Assembly (NCBI GenBank): GCA_032595675.1
Contig: JAVQMD010000001.1
Location: 1,644,640 to 1,708,639, forward strand
Origin: Candidatus Electrothrix rattekaaiensis
GTDB taxonomy: Bacteria; Desulfobacterota; Desulfobulbia; Desulfobulbales; Desulfobulbaceae
DNA length: 64,000 nucleotides
Reading direction: 5' to 3'
Numbering within the stretch: position 1 is the stretch's first letter; each line of letters starts with the position of its first letter. Positions 14,719-44,412 of the stretch are shown piece after piece. The notes under the pieces were generated by a model. It worked only from the letters and a program-made list of their open reading frames with translations. It had not been told where the DNA came from and did not search any database. The translations under genes were made by a program, and so were the position numbers.

Positions 14719-14843
14719 TTTTATTTGGGCGACCGATTTATCGACCGACACGTCGGGCACCCGCAATATGTCGATTTGTCGTGTAGAAATTTGTAATCAC
14801 GGAGATTTTATAAAAATGATTCGGCATTGTCCCTGTAACGACT

Positions 14844-15027
14844 GATTCATGATAGGTATCACGGCAGATTCATGATAGGTATCACGGCAGATTCATGATG
14901 GGTATCACGGCAGATTCATGATGAGTATCACGGCAGATTCATGATGAGTATCACGGCAGATTCATGATGAGTATCACGACAGATTCATGATACGTATCAC
15001 GACTGATTCGCGTCGGGTATCACGACA
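14844..15027. repeat. Minisatellite, eight 23-bp units
   Basis: Eight head-to-tail copies of a 23-base unit beginning GATTCATGATAGGTATCACG run from 14844. The first six are nearly identical, the seventh and eighth diverge. Each unit contains the palindrome TGATA-nn-TATCA. The array ends 25 bases before the leader-distal end of the CRISPR array. The other bases between 14719 and 15052 show nothing I can name. Confidence 0.9.
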
Positions 15028-15052: not shown

Positions 15053-17280
15053 ATTTCAATCCACGCCCCCGTGAGGGGGCGACCAACAAGATTCAATAAT
15101 CCACCAATACCTGTCAAGTTTCAATCCACGCCCCCGTGAGGGGGCGACATGGTCCCTTGGTACGGGACATGCACGGTCTCGTTTCAATCCACGCCCCCGT
15201 GAGGGGGCGACAACCGACCCGCTTTTATTCTCCGCGCTTGCGCGGGTTTCAATCCACGCCCCCGTGAGGGGGCGACCGACCATGCCCCAAGCACGGGGCA
15301 TATGGTGGGTTTCAATCCACGCCCCCGTGAGGGGGCGACCTCCAACGCAATCAGCCGTTCCCGATCAAAAGCTGTTTCAATCCACGCCCCCGTGAGGGGG
15401 CGACAAACGTCGGCCTCTGCTTAACCTTACTCCTTTTAGTTTCAATCCACGCCCCCGTGAGGGGGCGACGGGAAAAAGAAATTTATCGACGAATCCACAG
15501 GAGAGGTTTCAATCCACGCCCCCGTGAGGGGGCGACAAATTAAAAGGTTTGCTTTCCATGAGGATTACTCTGTTTCAATCCACGCCCCCGTGAGGGGGCG
15601 ACCCCAAGTGCAAAATATCCAAGGCTATATATCAAGTGTTTCAATCCACGCCCCCGTGAGGGGGCGACAGGCACCCTGTTGCTGATTACCCTATACCGCC
15701 TGTTTCAATCCACGCCCCCGTGAGGGGGCGACGTGTTAAAGGGCTATCTGCGACATAACTGGGATGTGTTTCAATCCACGCCCCCGTGAGGGGGCGACGA
15801 CGTAAAAGGAGTCGCTGATAACTCAGAGTTTCGTTTCAATCCACGCCCCCGTGAGGGGGCGACGGGAAAAAGAAATTTATCGACGAATCCACAGGAGAGG
15901 TTTCAATCCACGCCCCCGTGAGGGGGCGACAAATTAAAAGGTTTGCTTTCCATGAGGATTACTCTGTTTCAATCCACGCCCCCGTGAGGGGCGACCCCAG
16001 TGCAAAATATCCAAGGCTATATATCAAGTGTTTCAATCCACGCCCCCGTGAGGGGGCGACAGGCACCCTGTTGCTGATTACCCTATACCGCCTGTTTCAA
16101 TCCACGCCCCCGTGAGGGGGCGACGTGTTAAAGGGCTATCTGCGACATAACTGGGATGTGTTTCAATCCACGCCCCCGTGAGGGGCGACGACGTAAAGGA
16201 GTCGCTGATAACTCAGAGTTTCGTTTCAATCCACGCCCCCGTGAGGGGCGACGGGAAAAGAAATTTATCGACGAATCCACAGGAGAGGTTTCAATCCACG
16301 CCCCCGTGAGGGGGCGACAAATTAAAAGGTTTGCTTTCCATGAGGATTACTCTGTTTCAATCCACGCCCCCGTGAGGGGGCGACCCCAAGTGCAAAATAT
16401 CCAAGGCTATATATCAAGTGTTTCAATCCACGCCCCCGTGAGGGGGCGACAGGCACCCTGTTGCTGATTACCCTATACCGCCTGTTTCAATCCACGCCCC
16501 CGTGAGGGCGACGTGTTAAAGGGCTATCTGCGACATAACTGGGATGTGTACCACGCCGTGCGCGATACGGTTCTTCAATCCACGCCCCCGTGAGGGGCGA
16601 CAATTTAACACCTAGACCGGACGTAAAAGGAGTCGCTGATAACTCAGAGTTTCGTTTCAATCCACGCCCCCGTGAGGGGGCGACAAGATTTTTATACCCA
16701 CCGTTGAGACCGGGAACGTTTCGTTTCAATCCACGCCCCCGTGAGGGGGCGACATCAAAGATTATCAAACTGATATCGGAGTGTCCGTTTCAATCCACGC
16801 CCCCGTGAGGGGGCGACCTCGGCACGGGATCAGTGACTTACTCAGACTGGATCGTTTCAATCCACGCCCCCGTGAGGGGGCGACATCCTCGCTCGATCTA
16901 CGCAACCTCACCCCCACGGATCGTTTCAATCCACGCCCCCGTGAGGGGGCGACCTAGGAGACGGGAGATTTGTTACCTTTTTCCGGGGTTTCAATCCACG
17001 CCCCCGTGAGGGGGCGACGTGGAGAATCGGAGACACGTAAGCATAGGCGGCTGTTTCAATCCACGCCCCCGTGAGGGGGCGACAACCTTTGCGAGCTTAT
17101 CCCACGCGACAACACGGACGTTTCAATCCACGCCCCCGTGAGGGGGCGACCTGTCGATTCTCTGGTGGCTGCTTCTGTTTCCGGGTTTCAATCCACGCCC
17201 CCGTGAGGGGGCGACCTAGGAGACGGGAGATTTGTTACCTTTTTCCGGGGTTTCAATCCACGCCCCCGTGAGGGGGCGAC
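15053..17280 (-). CRISPR. Type I-C CRISPR array 1 (about 34 repeats)
   Basis: About 34 copies of a 31-bp repeat (GTTTCAATCCACGCCCCCGT... ending GCGAC on the + strand) are separated by 32-37 base spacers. The sequence class is that of type I-C repeats, which are transcribed in the opposite sense (ending GGATTGAAAC), so the array should be read from the minus strand with its leader on the right. The distal first repeat begins with A rather than G. A block of six spacers occurs three times in tandem (from about 15470, 15864 and 16254). Several repeats in the second and third copies lack one or two G residues. An aberrant join lies at 16544-16622. The spacers at 16954-16987 and 17216-17249 are identical. 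Confidence 0.97.
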
Positions 17281-17452
17281 TGTCAAGCTGCAACCGACTG
17301 TTACCGCTCGACGAATTACTGCATTTGCGCGAACCGCATTTTTCGGACGCGATCGCAAAGAGCAAAAGATGCTCTTTTTCGTAAAAACCTCCTGATTTCA
17401 ATATGTGCGAACCTCCCGTATTTTTCTGTCTACTAGAGGTTCGCGCAACCAT
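17281..17452 (-). promoter_or_regulatory. CRISPR leader of array 1
   Basis: The roughly 170 bases to the right of the last repeat are nearly the same as those to the right of array 2 (39681-39851), including TTTTTCGGACGCG, GATGCTCTTTTTCGTAAAAA and an inverted repeat GCGAACCTC / GAGGTTCGC around a T-rich centre. This shared flank identifies the leader and fixes the array direction. It would hold the crRNA promoter and the adaptation anchoring sites. Confidence 0.85.
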
Positions 17453-17456
17453 TTTG

Positions 17457-39120: not shown

Positions 39121-39680
39121 GTTTCAATCCACGCCCCCGTGAAGGGGGCGACGGGATGGGGTTACAAAATACGGTACAAACCCGGAAGTTTCAATCCACG
39201 CCCCCGTGAAGGGGGCGACGTCAGGGGCGTGGTGAATATCGAATCTGCGGTTGTTTCAATCCACGCCCCCGTGAAGGGGGCGACGTATAACAATCAGGTG
39301 TCTCAAGTTTCGGCACCGGTTTCAATCCACGCCCCCGTGAAGGGGGCGACAAATTGTTATATCATAACCTTTTGGTATAACGTGTTTCAATCCACGCCCC
39401 CGTGAAGGGGGCGACATTCACGCCACCGGTAGGGGGTTCAGGGGGTGAGTTTCAATCCACGCCCCCGTGAAGGGGGCGACTTTTTTTATGGAGCAAACAG
39501 ATGAGAGGTTTTGTTGTTTCAATCCACGCCCCCGTGAAGGGGGCGACATTTCAGGAAACATCATTCCTGAGCCTGAGTATGTTTCAATCCACGCCCCCGT
39601 GAAGGGGGCGACACAAGATTCTTCTAAGACAATTCCAGCATAGTTTTTGTTTCAATCCACGCCCCCGTGAAGGGGGCGAC
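39121..39680 (-). CRISPR. Type I-C CRISPR array 2 (9 repeats, 8 spacers)
   Basis: Nine repeats of 32 bp are identical to the array 1 repeat except for one extra A in the loop (GTGAAGGGGG instead of GTGAGGGGG). Spacers are 33-36 bases, all different from one another and from array 1. The leader is to the right and almost the same as that of array 1, so transcription runs on the minus strand, away from cas2. Starts are at 39121, 39188, 39253, 39319, 39384, 39449, 39516, 39581 and 39649. Confidence 0.97.
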
Positions 39681-39851
39681 TGTCGAACTGCAACGTACTG
39701 TTACGGCTCGACGAAATACTACATTTGCGCGAACCGCATTTTTCGGACGCGGTCGCAAAGAACAAAACATGCTCTTTTTCGTAAAAACCTCCTGATTTCA
39801 ATATGTGCGAACCTCCCGTGTTTTTCTGTCTGTTAGGGGTTCGCGCAAGCG
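39681..39851 (-). promoter_or_regulatory. CRISPR leader of array 2
   Basis: This flank matches the one of array 1 over about 170 bases with few changes. It ends abruptly after GCGCAAGCG (39851), where array 1 continues into the palindromic element; the continuation is found instead at 40237 beside the relic leader. Confidence 0.85.
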
Positions 39852-39949
39852 TTTTCGGGTAATATTTCGTAGCAATCGGATAACAGGTACTGTATTTCCA
39901 CAATATCATGTATCCTTTTCCCTGACAACCGTTACCCGCAGGTGCAACA

Positions 39950-39975
39950 GTTTCAATCCACGCCCCGGTGAAGGG
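39950..39975 (-). repeat. Degenerate orphan CRISPR repeat
   Basis: The 26 bases match the array 2 repeat from GTTTCAATCCACGCCCC to GTGAAGGG with one C-to-G change, and lack the last GGCGAC. It stands alone, 99 bases outside leader 2, and appears to be what is left of an older array. Confidence 0.8.
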
Positions 39976-39990
39976 AACGGCGGCGATGAA

Positions 39991-40128
39991 ACGAATGCAT
40001 GTATTTGACAGGCACGAATGCATGTATTTGACAGGCACGAATGCATGCATTTGACAGGCACGAATGCATGCATTTGATCGGCACGAATGCATGCAATCGT
40101 TCGGACCGCAAGCACGCAATCGATCAGA
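39991..40128. repeat. Minisatellite, about five to six 23-bp units
   Basis: Units start ACGAATGCATGTATTTGACA at 39991, 40014, 40037, 40060 and 40083, with a sixth decayed unit to 40128. Each contains the palindrome ATGCAT. The period is the same 23 bases as the minisatellite beside array 1, but the sequence differs. It occupies the place where spacers of a relic array would be. Confidence 0.87.
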
Positions 40129-40180
40129 TCGAAACCATGCAGTTCAACAACCGGACATATCTGATGACAGATTCATCGGC

Positions 40181-40237
40181 GTTTCAATATGTGCGAACCT
40201 CCCGTGTTTTTCTGTCTGTTAGGGGTTCGCGCAAGCG
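40181..40237 (-). promoter_or_regulatory. Relic CRISPR leader fragment
   Basis: The 56 bases 40182-40237 are identical to 39796-39851 at the outer end of leader 2 (TTTCAATATGTGCGAACCTC ... GCGCAAGCG). They are followed by the GTAGGGGC palindrome as in leader 1. The relic leader, decayed repeat and minisatellite form a disrupted leader-array unit between cas2 and the working array. Confidence 0.8.
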
Positions 40238-40243
40238 GTTCTG

Positions 40244-40268
40244 GTAGGGGCGACCGGCGGTCGCCCAG
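40244..40268. repeat. GTAGGGGC-type palindromic element
   Basis: GTAGGGGCGACCGG followed by CGGTCGCCC makes a short hairpin of the kind scattered in deltaproteobacterial intergenic DNA. It flanks the relic leader. Confidence 0.6.
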
Positions 40269-40321
40269 CTAACACAGCATCATAATATCTCCATAATGCC
40301 ACTTCCTTCCTGGACCGTCAA

Positions 40322-40612
40322 TCAGACAATCAAGGTACCCTCCTGATCAATGCCCTCCTTGGCCCCGATATGCTCGACCCGGTGCTTCCAGTTGGACCCG
40401 AGAAAGTAAAAACGGAGGCTGTCCACATCCTTATCAATCTCCCTGATGAGCCGATCCCGCATCACCACCCATTTATCCGGCGGCACAATGCATTCAAACA
40501 CGGAATATTGGACCCGCTGACCGTAATTTTTACAGACCTTGGCAACCCGGCGCAGGCGTTTCGGTCCGGTTCTATCGCTTGTTTTCACATCGTAACTGAC
40601 CAGGACAAACAT
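40322..40612 (-). CDS. cas2: CRISPR-associated Cas2, type I-C
   Basis: A 96-residue ferredoxin-fold protein with the Cas2 start FVLVSYDVKT (the conserved Asp), RLRRVAKVCKNYGQRVQYSVFEC and the C-terminal basic/IG segment typical of I-C systems. Cas2 dimers bridge two Cas1 dimers in the spacer-integration complex. It is the last gene of the cas4-cas1-cas2 run and faces the leader of array 2. Unlike most I-C operons, it is separated from cas1 by 110 bases that contain two palindromic elements. Confidence 0.96.
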   Translation of the reverse strand: MFVLVSYDVKTSDRTGPKRLRRVAKVCKNYGQRVQYSVFECIVPPDKWVVMRDRLIREIDKDVDSLRFYFLGSNWKHRVEHIGAKEGIDQEGTLIV

Positions 40613-40636
40613 AATTCCCTCCTTGCAGTGATTGTC

Positions 40637-40724
40637 GTAGGGGCGAACCCCTGTGTTCGCCCATGTCCTGTTGGGTAGGGTCTTGCCCTTACTAACCGGG
40701 CAGGCACAGGGGCCTGCCCCTACT
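40637..40724. repeat. Two GTAGGGGC-type palindromes between cas2 and cas1
   Basis: One hairpin (GTAGGGGCGAACCCC / GTGTTCGCCC, 40637-40662) and a second in inverse orientation (GGGCAGGCACAGGGGCCTGC, 40698-40724) fill the cas1-cas2 gap. The second touches the cas1 stop codon. They are probably mobile palindromic repeats inserted into the operon. Confidence 0.65.
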
Positions 40725-41751
40725 AACGCCAGATTGCTGGCGGGTAGCCGTCCAGATCTCCCCGAAGAAAACGGGCCAGCAACAGGGCCTGGGTATGGAA
40801 AAACAGACCCAGCGGCATTTTCTCTTCCAAAAAAGGATGCAGGAGCACATCCTGTTTCCGCTCCTGATAGGCGGTCAGCAGAACTTTTCTCGCCTTATCC
40901 TTCATCCGCACTCCGCCGCTGTCACTGACCACAAAATCCTTGGCCTGCAACTGGCCCCGATTGATCAGGGAAAGGGCCATGCGATCAGCCATAGGGCGAA
41001 ATTCCTCCATCATATCCAGGGCCAGACTTGCCCGGCCCGGTCGATCCCGATGAAGAAACCCCACAGCCGGATCAAGGCCGGTGCATTCCAGGGCAGAGCG
41101 CACATCGTGCATAACCAGGGTGTAGAGAAAGGAGAGCAGGCAGTTGACCAGATCCAGGGGCGGTCTTCGGCTGCGTCGGTGAAAGAAAAAATCCTCTTTA
41201 TGCCGGATAATAAGATGATCGAAGACCCCGAAATAAACATGGGCACCATCGCCTTCCGTGCCCCGCACCTCATCCAGGGGCAGATCCCGGCCCAGGGATT
41301 TGAGCAGACCAGTGAGATGATTGGCCGCATTGCTCACCGCATCAGTATCCATTTTTTCCGGGTGATCCCGCATAGCCCGGTTCAGCAGAGCGCGGCAGTT
41401 GGCGATCTTGCCGTTGATAAAGGCCCGGGCCATGAGTGCGGAAAAATCCAGATCATCGGCCCGGCGATACTGCTCCCGTCGCAGCAGGACATTGCCGGAA
41501 ACCGGTCCCTGCACCCGTGCGAGAAAACGCCCGTATTCGGTCAGAAAACTGATCGTCACGTCCCGTTCCGCACAAAATCCCAGGAGAAACGGGCTGCATC
41601 CCACATTGCCGAAGCAGACAACCCCGTCCAGAGTATGGATGGGCAGGCGCAACCGGATCTTTTTTTCCACCCGCACAGCAACGGTTTCTCCTTCCTTGGC
41701 CAGATAGGCCCCTTGGGTGGTGACAAAGAGCGTGTTCAGATGTTTTTTCAT
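40723..41751 (-). CDS. cas1: CRISPR-associated Cas1 integrase, type I-C
   Basis: Cas1 integrates new spacers. The N-terminal beta domain (about 1-85) is followed by the helical catalytic domain with the metal ligands Glu166 (RGTEGDGAH), His234 (VGFLHRDRPGR) and an acidic residue in ALDMMEEFRP. The length of 342 is normal for subtype I-C. Its ATG overlaps the cas4 stop by four bases. All three catalytic residues are kept, so spacer acquisition should be possible. Confidence 0.97.
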   Translation of the reverse strand: MKKHLNTLFVTTQGAYLAKEGETVAVRVEKKIRLRLPIHTLDGVVCFGNVGCSPFLLGFCAERDVTISFLTEYGRFLARVQGPVSGNVLLRREQYRRADDLDFSALMARAFINGKIANCRALLNRAMRDHPEKMDTDAVSNAANHLTGLLKSLGRDLPLDEVRGTEGDGAHVYFGVFDHLIIRHKEDFFFHRRSRRPPLDLVNCLLSFLYTLVMHDVRSALECTGLDPAVGFLHRDRPGRASLALDMMEEFRPMADRMALSLINRGQLQAKDFVVSDSGGVRMKDKARKVLLTAYQERKQDVLLHPFLEEKMPLGLFFHTQALLLARFLRGDLDGYPPAIWR

Positions 41752-42377
41752 GATTCCGTCATCCTGATCATATAGTTCCGCACCTGTCCCTTTTTCCCCA
41801 GGGTCTTGGGCAGGCAGGTGTCGATAAAAGAACAGCTTTCACAACGGCGGCTGTATTGCGGGGGCGGGGTGCTGGTGGAGGAAAGGAGGTCGTGCAGGCG
41901 AGCCGCAGTTTCCTCGGTGATCCGGCGGAGGCGATCATCAAACAGCACCGGAGTACGGCGTTTTTTCTGGCCGTAGTAGAGTGCGCCTTCCGGGACGGTG
42001 CAGTCCAGCATTTCTTCCAGGCACAGGGCCTGAGCGCAGAGCTGAACCCGGTCGGAATCATCCTTTTTCGGGCGACCCCGTTTATACTCCACCGGAAAGG
42101 GTTGCCAAGCCTTGTTGTCCTGAAGATGCATCTCCACGATATCAGCCCTGCCGGAAAGCCCCAAGCGCAGGGAGCGGAGGGGCATATCATACTCCACCCG
42201 GATGGTGGTACGGGAGTCTGTGGCTGCGGTATGCACCCGCTCGTGCAGAACCCGGCCTTCAGCAGTGAAGCGATTTTCCGTCCAGGCCTGCTCAATATGA
42301 ATCAGGGCGCATTGGCGGGGACAGAAGAGCAGATGTTGGAGCGCGGACAGCATGAGGAGGTCGTCTTCCGTGTACAT
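41748..42377 (-). CDS. cas4: CRISPR-associated Cas4 nuclease, type I-C
   Basis: Cas4 trims and orients prespacers by PAM. A RecB-like core is visible (Asp79, then Glu97-x-Lys99 in VEYKRG). The iron-sulfur cysteines are Cys19/Cys23 near the N-terminus and Cys179, Cys182, Cys188 in RRCESCSFIDTC. The length of 209 is typical. In complete I-C loci cas7, cas8c, cas5 and cas3 lie upstream; here the upstream side is occupied at once by a divergent antitoxin gene and an insertion sequence. Confidence 0.95.
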   Translation of the reverse strand: MYTEDDLLMLSALQHLLFCPRQCALIHIEQAWTENRFTAEGRVLHERVHTAATDSRTTIRVEYDMPLRSLRLGLSGRADIVEMHLQDNKAWQPFPVEYKRGRPKKDDSDRVQLCAQALCLEEMLDCTVPEGALYYGQKKRRTPVLFDDRLRRITEETAARLHDLLSSTSTPPPQYSRRCESCSFIDTCLPKTLGKKGQVRNYMIRMTES

Positions 42378-42457: not shown

Positions 42458-42619
42458 ATGTTTCGATGCGATATTGAAGAGCTTGAAGCTGATTTTTCCG
42501 CTATCATCGCCAAGGTGGAAGCAGGCGCGACCGTAACTGTTTATAAGGATGATGAACCGTTTGCCGAAATCAGACCCATTCAAACTCACATTGAGCGGGT
42601 TGTCTTTTTTGAAAAATAG
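42458..42619 (+). pseudogene. Phd/YefM-type antitoxin gene interrupted by the IS element
   Basis: The start is fixed by AGGAGG seven bases upstream. The first 40 residues (CDIEELEADFSAIIAKVEAGATVTVYKDDEPFAEIRPI) have the Phd/YefM DNA-binding layout. The following codons, up to the stop at 42619, run into the left inverted repeat of the IS and are foreign. A likely C-terminal continuation (ending ADDYLEEKVI) is found at 44323-44412, just after the right end of the IS. No toxin gene follows, so the module is dead or an orphan. Confidence 0.75.
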
Positions 42620-44322
42620 ATTAAAATTCACCATAATTCCATACTGTTCGCTGTAAACATCTTACAATACTGTAATAATGGAAAAATACTCGATTGAACG
42701 ACTTGATCATTTAGGCATAGTAGCCGGAACAATTAAAGATCTCGGGCTGGTAGAATTTATTGACTCCCACTTGGGCCATTATGAAAATGAAACTTTGTCC
42801 GCTGGGGAAACCGTAGCTGGAATGATATTGAACGGATTAGGTTTTTCCAATAAGCCCCTGTCATTGACCCCTTTATTTTTTCAAAACTGTCCTCTTTCTT
42901 TGCTGTTTAGGGACGGAGTGAATGCCGATGATTTTAATCGTTTCAAACTCGGGCGCGTCCTCGACCGTCTGCACAATTTTGGAACCGAAGCACTTTTCAG
43001 TCACATAGCTGTCGATGTCTGTGAAAAAGAAAACATTGACTTTCGTTTCAATCATTTGGATACAAGTGCTTTCAGTCTGACGGGTGAATATCTTCCAGAT
43101 GTTGATGAGCAGGCGATTTCTATCACCCACGGACATTCTAAAGACCATCGCCCTGATTTAAAACAGGTCATGCTTGAAATGATGGTTACTCAGGATGGCG
43201 GAATTCCAATTTTATTTAAAAGCTTAGACGGTAACAGTTCAGACAACACTGTCTTTAAGGATCGTGCGGCAGCTCTGATCAAAGAGTTTGAACAGTCTGA
43301 AACCCCTCGGTATATTGTAGCCGACTGCAAGATGTATACTCGGAAGAATGCCCCAAATTTAAGTAAACTGCTTTTTGTCACCCGTATTCCTCAAAATATA
43401 AAAGAAGTTGAAGAAGTTATCACTCAGGCCTTGGACAACACAGATGACTGGCTGGAATTCGATGGCGGACCTAACGTCAAGATGTTCAATGTGGAACATT
43501 ATGGAATCAGGCAGAGGTGGCATGTTGTTTCTTCTGAAGCTTCTCGTCAAAAATCCGTCAAAAAAATCGAAAAAAAGGCAAAAAAAGAAAGAGTTAAGAT
43601 CCAGAAAGCAATTTTTCACCTGCAAGCGGATCGCTTTCACTGCGTAGAAGATGCAATCAAAGCGGGCGAGAAATTAGCCGGCAGATGGAAGACCCACAGC
43701 CTATCATCGTATGAAATCATAGAACATAAACAGTACAAAGGGAAAGGACGTCCGAAAAAAGGTGAACAACCTGTCGCAATTGATTATCAGATAGTTTTAG
43801 CAGCACAGCTTGACAGCGACAAAGTGGATCGACTGCAAAAAGTAGCTGCATGTTATATCATAGGCACTAATATCCATGAAGAACATCTGTCTGTACAGGA
43901 AGTTCTCTATGCCTATAAGGAACAAAACCATGCGGAACAAGGGTTCCGTTTTCTGAAGGATCCTTTATTTTTTGCTTCCTCCTTATTTTTAAAAAAACCG
44001 TCTCGAATTTCTGCATTACTTATGGTCATGGTGCTTTCACTGTTAGTTTACGGGATAGCAGAAAGACGAATGCGTAATCGGTTAGCTGAACAGCAGGAAA
44101 CCGTTCCTAATCAAATTAACCAGCCTACTCAGACACCTACTTTGCGCTGGATTTTTCAGTTAATGGGCGGAATCAGTCGTATCAAAATCACTGTTGGAAA
44201 CCGGGTTAAATATGTTTTTGACGGTATTACCAAGCTGAAACAACGAATACTGTTACTCTTTGGTGATGGTGTGGCTAATATATATCAAATTTCATAAAAC
44301 TGCACCCGCTCAATGTGAGTTT
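42582..44322 (+). mobile_element. IS1634-family insertion sequence
   Basis: Perfect 19-bp inverted repeats (AAACTCACATTGAGCGGGT at 42582-42600 and its complement at 44304-44322) enclose a single intact transposase gene. The total length of about 1741 bp fits the family. The flanks TTCAAA and TTTAAA/TTAAAA are similar but not identical, so a target duplication is probable but not clean. The element splits an antitoxin gene, and no second copy is seen in the window. Confidence 0.9.
42678..44297 (+). CDS. IS1634-family DDE transposase
   Basis: The N-terminal DUF4277-like part (EKYSIERLDHLGIVAGTIKDLGL) is followed by a DDE core: DTSAFSLTGEY (first Asp, about residue 128), YIVADCKMYT (second Asp), and EQNHAEQGFRFLKDP (Glu region, about 420), with the hydrophobic SALLMVMVLSLLVYGIAE helix typical of IS1634/IS1549. 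The 539-residue frame is uninterrupted, so the enzyme may be active. It ends 25 bases before the right inverted repeat. Confidence 0.93.
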   Translation: MEKYSIERLDHLGIVAGTIKDLGLVEFIDSHLGHYENETLSAGETVAGMILNGLGFSNKPLSLTPLFFQNCPLSLLFRDGVNADDFNRFKLGRVLDRLHNFGTEALFSHIAVDVCEKENIDFRFNHLDTSAFSLTGEYLPDVDEQAISITHGHSKDHRPDLKQVMLEMMVTQDGGIPILFKSLDGNSSDNTVFKDRAAALIKEFEQSETPRYIVADCKMYTRKNAPNLSKLLFVTRIPQNIKEVEEVITQALDNTDDWLEFDGGPNVKMFNVEHYGIRQRWHVVSSEASRQKSVKKIEKKAKKERVKIQKAIFHLQADRFHCVEDAIKAGEKLAGRWKTHSLSSYEIIEHKQYKGKGRPKKGEQPVAIDYQIVLAAQLDSDKVDRLQKVAACYIIGTNIHEEHLSVQEVLYAYKEQNHAEQGFRFLKDPLFFASSLFLKKPSRISALLMVMVLSLLVYGIAERRMRNRLAEQQETVPNQINQPTQTPTLRWIFQLMGGISRIKITVGNRVKYVFDGITKLKQRILLLFGDGVANIYQIS

Positions 44323-44412
44323 AAAAGGCAGAAAGAGCATGAACGGCTTTACAATTATAAAGCTACCGACCAGGGATATGCAGATGATTATCTGGAAGAG
44401 AAAGTGATATGA
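44323..44412 (+). pseudogene. C-terminal remnant of the split antitoxin gene
   Basis: The frame starting AAA AGG CAG just after the IS right end codes a hydrophilic 29-residue tail ending ADDYLEEKVI and a TGA stop. Its position and coding character fit the missing end of the antitoxin. No toxin frame follows on this strand up to the convergent gene at 44531. Confidence 0.5.

What the first reader, a model, noticed from the sequence alone, without database searches (positions are those of the whole stretch)
39796..40268. Relic leader-array unit between cas2 and array 2
A 56-bp segment of the leader is repeated exactly at 40182-40237, with the GTAGGGGC palindrome outside it. Between the two copies lie one decayed CRISPR repeat (39950-39975) and a 23-bp minisatellite. 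This reads as an older leader and array whose spacers were lost and replaced by a tandem repeat, leaving a second leader to take over.
Basis: partly seen in the sequence, partly recalled or inferred. Interest (0 to 1): 0.6.

Follow-up and report, generated by a model that had tools for sequence, protein, structure and literature searches.

The report
Leftover second head of CRISPR leader
Between a bacterium's CRISPR adaptation genes and its spacer array sits a leftover, cut-short copy of the DNA "landing strip" for new spacers, and sister species show the same junction in two simpler forms, so the site records how such junctions are remodelled; the site itself is a modest, mostly ordinary evolutionary scar.

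Summary
A 56-bp leader segment is repeated exactly (39796-39851, 40182-40237). Between the copies lie one decayed type I-C repeat (25 of 26 bases) and a 23-bp minisatellite.

The 56-bp segment is the upstream docking-type module of I-C leaders: GCGAACC-N26/27-GGTTCGC, just after the cas2 stop, found in strict form in 44 of 68 related leaders. Copy A heads a complete leader with the standard phasing (158/131/53 bp to the first repeat) and its own promoter-like site. Copy B has a second promoter-like site but lacks the repeat-proximal half, so it is a truncated, presumably dead, leader head.

Relatives split the junction. G006 and G003 have one leader with copy B's flank. G004 and G007 have one leader with copy A's flank plus a 23-bp minisatellite. 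The window has both. "Relic leader" is therefore supported. "Spacers replaced by a tandem repeat" is not: the minisatellite is a dispersed genus-wide family and occurs at this place without a detectable relic repeat.

Side results: the same leader architecture, in exact register, precedes a Cas6-associated array with a different repeat in this single-Cas1 genome; and the I-C operon is split between two inverted, 99.8% identical IS1634 copies.

The parts
39121..39680 (-). Array 2: 9 type I-C repeats (32 nt), 8 spacers; leader side is the right end
39681..39795 (-). Repeat-proximal half of leader A; third half-site (TTCGC on the minus strand) at 39729-39733, 53 bp from the repeat
   Evidence: 53-bp phasing shared with related leaders
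39796..39851 (-). Copy A of the 56-bp leader head; inverted repeat 39807-39844
39852..39949 (.). Right flank of copy A, homologous to the cas2-leader spacer of G007/G004
   Evidence: z 7.3 and 7.6, 0 of 1000 shuffles reach it
39900..39928 (-). Promoter-like site P_A, TTGTCA-17-TATTGT with TG, counterpart in G007/G004
39950..39975 (-). Decayed CRISPR repeat, 25 of 26 bases
39991..40095 (.). 23-bp minisatellite; further degenerate units to about 40174
40182..40237 (-). Copy B of the leader head, without a repeat-proximal half; inverted repeat 40193-40230
40244..40266 (.). GTAGGGGC..GCCC palindrome, also outside the leader of array 1 (variant) and in G006/G003/G001
40293..40321 (-). Promoter-like site P_B, TTGACG-17-CATTAT with TG, conserved in G006, G003, G001
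40322..40612 (-). cas2
40723..41751 (-). cas1 (type I-C), the only Cas1 found in the genome
41748..42377 (-). cas4
42582..44332 (+). IS1634 copy next to cas4; an inverted 99.8% identical copy follows the separated cas3-5-8-7 locus
17281..17455 (-). Leader of array 1, same module and phasing

Best explanation
The cas2-array junction carries two leader heads in tandem. Copy A belongs to a complete, standard type I-C leader with its own promoter-like site and serves array 2. Copy B is the truncated head of a cas2-adjacent leader: it keeps promoter and inverted repeat but has lost the repeat-proximal half, so by the phasing rule it cannot direct spacer integration. The solo decayed repeat is a scrap of array left between them. 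The minisatellite is a member of a dispersed family that settled in the cas2-leader gap before or independently of any array loss. The two identical 56-bp heads are a ready substrate for recombination, and deletion between them gives exactly the one-leader junction of G006 and G003. Shown: anatomy, homology of each half to a different relative, single-copy form in relatives, standard phasing of A and its absence for B. Inferred: the order of events, the inactivity of B, and the function of the inverted repeat as an adaptation docking site.
For: Copy A's outer flank aligns to G007 and G004 (0 of 1000 shuffles) and not clearly to the seven other leader flanks compared. Copy B's outer flank aligns to G006 and G003 at z about 25 and to array 1 at z 5. 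The window with the A-B interval left out matches G006 and G003 at 267 of 279 positions each, ungapped. Leader A, array 1, G006, G003 and G007 all have half-sites at 158, 131 and 53 bp before the repeat; copy B has none near 53 bp and sits 211-243 bp before the relic repeat. The strict inverted repeat is in 44 of 68 related leaders (shuffle mean 0.015), and the third half-site lies 52-54 bp from the repeat in 30 of the 31 that have one downstream. Both heads have a promoter-like site with relatives' counterparts. The leader-proximal part of A is closest to G006/G003 (95-96%; G007/G004 91-92%), as expected if those genomes are collapse products.
Against: A and B are identical over 56 bp, which is odd for a long-dead relic unless conversion or recent exchange keeps them alike. 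The relic repeat is not detectable in G007 or G004, so an old array there is not shown. The placement of G001 in the cas tree is unresolved (support 47), so the order of gain and loss is not fixed. G001 is cut by foreign sequence inside the element and cannot arbitrate. Promoter sites are consensus matches (4 found, 1.3 expected). No expression or acquisition data exist.
Confidence: 0.55

Rival explanations
1. Recent recombination: the window's ancestor had the G006-type single leader and took up a G007-type piece (minisatellite, P_A, leader head) by crossover in the leader head, making the duplicate in this lineage only.
For: Explains the two kinds of flank and the identity of A and B; the sister genomes G006 and G003 (tree support 90) have only the single form.
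Against: Needs a donor and an illegitimate right-hand join. The interval is far more diverged from G007 than the leader is, so a close donor is not among the genomes searched.
Confidence: 0.3
2. The solo repeat makes a crRNA-like regulatory RNA (CreTA-like ectopic repeat), transcribed from P_B.
For: A decayed repeat with an intact 3' end stands next to cas genes, downstream of a promoter-like site.
Against: Only one repeat, not present in any of the relatives' junctions read; TTC plus the first bases after the repeat (pattern TTCTGTTGNACCTG) has no match in the genome and no excess of near matches in the window (6 against 5.67 expected).
Confidence: 0.04
3. A mobile element inserted in the leader and made a 56-bp target duplication.
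For: Direct repeats flank the interval; a single copy is seen in G006 and G003.
Against: The interval is homologous to the native cas2-leader spacer of G007/G004, the only open reading frame of 90 aa or more that overlaps the interval reads through the minisatellite and leader and looks non-coding, and the repeated unit coincides with a conserved leader module.
Confidence: 0.04
4. The older unit was a full leader and spacer array whose spacers were replaced by the minisatellite.
For: A leader head and one repeat remain.
Against: The minisatellite family is dispersed and stands at this junction in G007/G004 without a detectable repeat; no old spacer is identifiable.
Confidence: 0.07

Closest known systems
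Type I-C CRISPR-Cas leader with phased upstream motifs
   Same: cas2-adjacent inverted repeat and a fixed third half-site before the first repeat, as in the related leaders tested
   Different: Here the head occurs twice and the outer copy lacks the proximal half. The survey of leader motifs by Santiago-Frangos et al. 2021 is known to me only from recall and citations; the paper is not held, so I cannot say whether this motif is in it
Type I-F leader inverted-repeat motifs contacted by Cas2 (PMC12259127, passages seen)
   Same: Inverted-repeat motifs in the leader read during integration
   Different: Another subtype; no structure or binding data for the I-C motif here
Decayed CRISPR arrays and orphan repeats (general knowledge, recalled)
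   Same: A single degenerate repeat without neighbours
   Different: Lies upstream of an intact leader, between two leader heads
CreTA ectopic repeats (PMC9458426, abstract, section list and passages seen)
   Same: Degenerate repeat outside an array, near cas genes
   Different: One repeat only, no seed match found, not conserved in the relatives read

Membership tests
Type I-C leader-array unit (copy A) | I-C Cas1 and I-C repeat next to it | tested here: met
   TIGR03640 over cut-off; 9 repeats ending ATTGAAAC
Type I-C leader-array unit (copy A) | Inverted repeat and third half-site at the standard distances from the first repeat | tested here: met
   158/131/53 bp, same as array 1, G006, G003, G007
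Type I-C leader-array unit (copy A) | Standard distance to the cas2 stop | tested here: not met
   641 bp against a median of 184 (range 170-421) in 68 related loci
Type I-C leader-array unit (copy B) | Repeat-proximal half and third half-site | tested here: not met
   No TTCGC near 53 bp before the relic repeat; the nearest is at 216
Type I-C leader-array unit (copy B) | Array of two or more repeats | tested here: not met
   One repeat at 39950-39975
CreTA | Spacer-like stretch with complementarity to a nearby promoter | tested here: inconclusive
   No genome match to TTCTGTTGNACCTG, no excess in the window; other pairing not tested
CreTA | Toxic RNA repressed by Cascade | not testable with these tools
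   No expression data
Transposon insertion | Element found at other sites with its own ends | tested here: not met
   Only the minisatellite part recurs elsewhere in the genome, besides CRISPR-repeat hits and short weak matches

The most novel reading that the evidence does not exclude
One Cas4-Cas1-Cas2 set integrates spacers into two kinds of array with unrelated repeats, chosen by a shared leader whose three half-sites keep the same distances (158/131/53) to the first repeat. Leader heads then behave as exchangeable modules that recombine between loci, and the double head in this window is a trapped intermediate of such an exchange.
Probability: 0.3. Interest if true: 0.6.

Novelty: new member of a known kind. 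Interest (0 to 1): 0.38.

Why it matters
The junction gives a natural deletion series of one leader across sister species (single head with flank B, single head with flank A, both), which lets the minimal parts of a type I-C leader be read from evolution. The phasing rule offers a way to tell a live leader from a dead head before experiments. If the shared leader of the I-C and Cas6-associated arrays really means shared adaptation, it shows the leader, rather than the repeat, deciding where one Cas1-Cas2 works.

Tried and rejected
Relic repeat in G007/G004: not detectable (score 14 against shuffle mean 14.4; 333 and 316 of 500 shuffles reach it). An eye reading that G007 keeps a more decayed copy was dropped. 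Shared spacers between array 2, array 1 and seven array stretches of G006, G003, G007, G004 and G001: none found. Viral origin of the stretch after the relic repeat: 0 exact matches of a 21-mer in viral contigs. Target duplication of the IS1634 copies as proof of an inversion: the flanks show none, so the inversion stays an inference. A leader-proximal hairpin as a general feature: 17 of 70 leaders against 5.4 in shuffles, not general. Alignment of only the inner part of the copy-A flank with G007 was not beyond shuffles (score 29, maximum 35 of 300), because that slice of G007 had left out the bases next to the head; the full flank anchored at the head was. An offset for G006 was a script slip, corrected. 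Cmr2: none found in the own genome, 4 of 8 genus genomes have it over the cut-off, so the type of the Cas6-associated array stays open. Literature; cable-bacterium genome papers were searched once without a useful hit.

Limits: the 68 leaders come from 80 loci picked for similarity to this Cas1; 12 were dropped (5 without a cas2 hit, 7 without a repeat within 600 bp). Shuffles keep base content only. Of the 44 strict matches one lies off the standard place (48 bp from the repeat).

Full report
What is there. Array 2 (39121-39680) has nine type I-C repeats and its leader lies to the right, towards cas2-cas1-cas4 on the minus strand. The relic repeat is the only one of 44 repeat matches in the window that lies outside the two arrays.

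What the 56-bp segment is. I compared the stretch between cas2 and the first repeat in loci that encode relatives of this Cas1. Of 80 loci, 68 gave a leader. A strict inverted repeat GCGAA[CT]-N14..34-[AG]TTCGC is in 44 of 68 (shuffle mean 0.015), with 26 or 27 bases between the arms in 43 of the 44. It begins a median 9 bp after the cas2 stop. Its end lies 126-128 or 134-138 bp from the repeat in 43 of 44. In 31 of 44 there is a further TTCGC downstream, at 52-54 bp from the repeat in 30 of those 31. A looser form is in 58 of 68. The 56-bp segment is thus the head of the leader. Leader A, array 1, G006, G003 and G007 have sites at 158, 131 and 53 bp. Copy B has no such partner: its arms stand 243 and 211 bp before the relic repeat and no half-site lies near 53 bp.

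What relatives show. A search of 37 genomes with the whole junction, followed by reading the regions, gave three forms. In G006 and G003 one leader stands next to cas2 (in G003 most of cas4-cas1-cas2 is missing at this locus), and the query's left and right parts overlap there by the 56-59 bp element. In G004 and G007 one leader is followed by about 280 bp that holds 23-bp units before cas2. G001 has cas2, palindrome and the first part of the element, then unrelated sequence near a contig end. Copy A's flank aligns with G007 and G004 (z 7.3 and 7.6, 0 of 1000 shuffles); none of the other seven flanks compared comes near (z from -0.7 to 2.1). Copy B's flank aligns with G006 and G003 (z 25.0 and 24.5), with array 1 (z 5.1) and more weakly with the array-1 counterpart in G003 (z 3.9). 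The window sequence with the interval left out agrees with G006 and G003 at 267 of 279 positions each. The window is therefore the form that contains both halves. On lysS plus argJ the window's genome groups with G006 and G003 (G006+G003 at 90), apart from G007+G004 and G001+G002. G001's place in the cas tree is unresolved (47). So either the double head is old and was collapsed in G006/G003 and lost in G004/G007, or it was made recently by recombination. I prefer the first, not strongly.

Minisatellite. Similar 23-bp units lie elsewhere in the own genome and in several genus members; the nine places read are not next to I-C arrays. A different 23-bp unit lies beyond the distal end of array 1 and is also dispersed in the genus. 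The unit at the junction is thus not what is left of spacers.

Function. Two promoter-like sites on the minus strand, one upstream of each leader head, fit a unit of promoter, inverted repeat, proximal leader, repeat. P_B is kept in G006, G003 and G001; P_A has a counterpart in G007 and G004. I infer that A is transcribed and accepts spacers, and that B is read through but cannot guide integration. Nothing here measures either.

Wider result. The same module stands before an array with another repeat (GTTGTCTATTGACCGGATTTGGAACGGGGTTACGAC) in G000, G004 and G003, with half-sites at the same distances from the first repeat. Leader A and the G000 leader of that array agree at 97 of 165 ungapped positions against a shuffle maximum of 60 in 2000. 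A Cas6 gene lies about 11 kb away beside another copy of the module. The genome has one Cas1 by a family search. Shared adaptation is a natural inference, not shown. Trans acquisition is usually discussed in terms of matching repeats (PMC12814883, passages seen).

Split operon. cas3-cas5-cas8c-cas7 lie about 385 kb away and are followed by an IS1634 copy, 99.8% identical over 1752 bp and inverted relative to the copy next to cas4. In G006, G004 and G001 these genes stand together with cas4-cas1-cas2 (the cas3 matches in G006 and G004 are cut by the ends of the stretches fetched). An IS-mediated inversion would explain this; no target duplication was seen.

Verdict. The finding is real and partly as read: a relic leader head, yes; spacers replaced by a minisatellite, not supported. 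It is a modest variant of known leader-array evolution, with a more interesting lead in the shared leader.

Noticed in passing
L219:15604-16431; L004, L076, L078: Array with a different repeat preceded by a leader homologous to the I-C leader in exact register (97 of 165 positions), in a genome with a single Cas1; a Cas6 gene (L219:4035-5021) sits near a further copy of the module.
   Followed up: partly
42582-44332 and L218:12472-14222: Two inverted, 99.8% identical IS1634 copies bound the two separated halves of the I-C operon (cas4-1-2 here, cas3-5-8-7 about 385 kb away), which suggests an IS-mediated inversion.
   Followed up: partly
14838-15027: Another 23-bp minisatellite of different sequence beyond the distal end of array 1; it too is dispersed in the genus. 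In L050 two different 23-bp unit types run into each other.
   Followed up: partly
15373-16549: Array 1 contains a block of about 394 bp in three tandem copies, that is, a run of spacers triplicated with their repeats.
   Followed up: no
L061:9596-9911: In G003 the leader and the cas2 end jump to the cas4 start side (window 40402 to 42328): most of cas4-cas1-cas2 is missing while a neighbouring cas3/cas7 set of low similarity is present.
   Followed up: no
40240-40330: The stretch between copy B and cas2 is about 98% identical to G001 and G006 although the cas genes are 86-92% identical; unusually conserved for a spacer region.
   Followed up: no
Leaders in L107, L108, L113, L115, L126: A short inverted repeat of changing sequence ends 1-3 bp before the first repeat in these leaders; 17 of 70 leaders overall have arms of 6 or more ending within 8 nt of the repeat, against 5.4 in shuffles.
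   Followed up: partly
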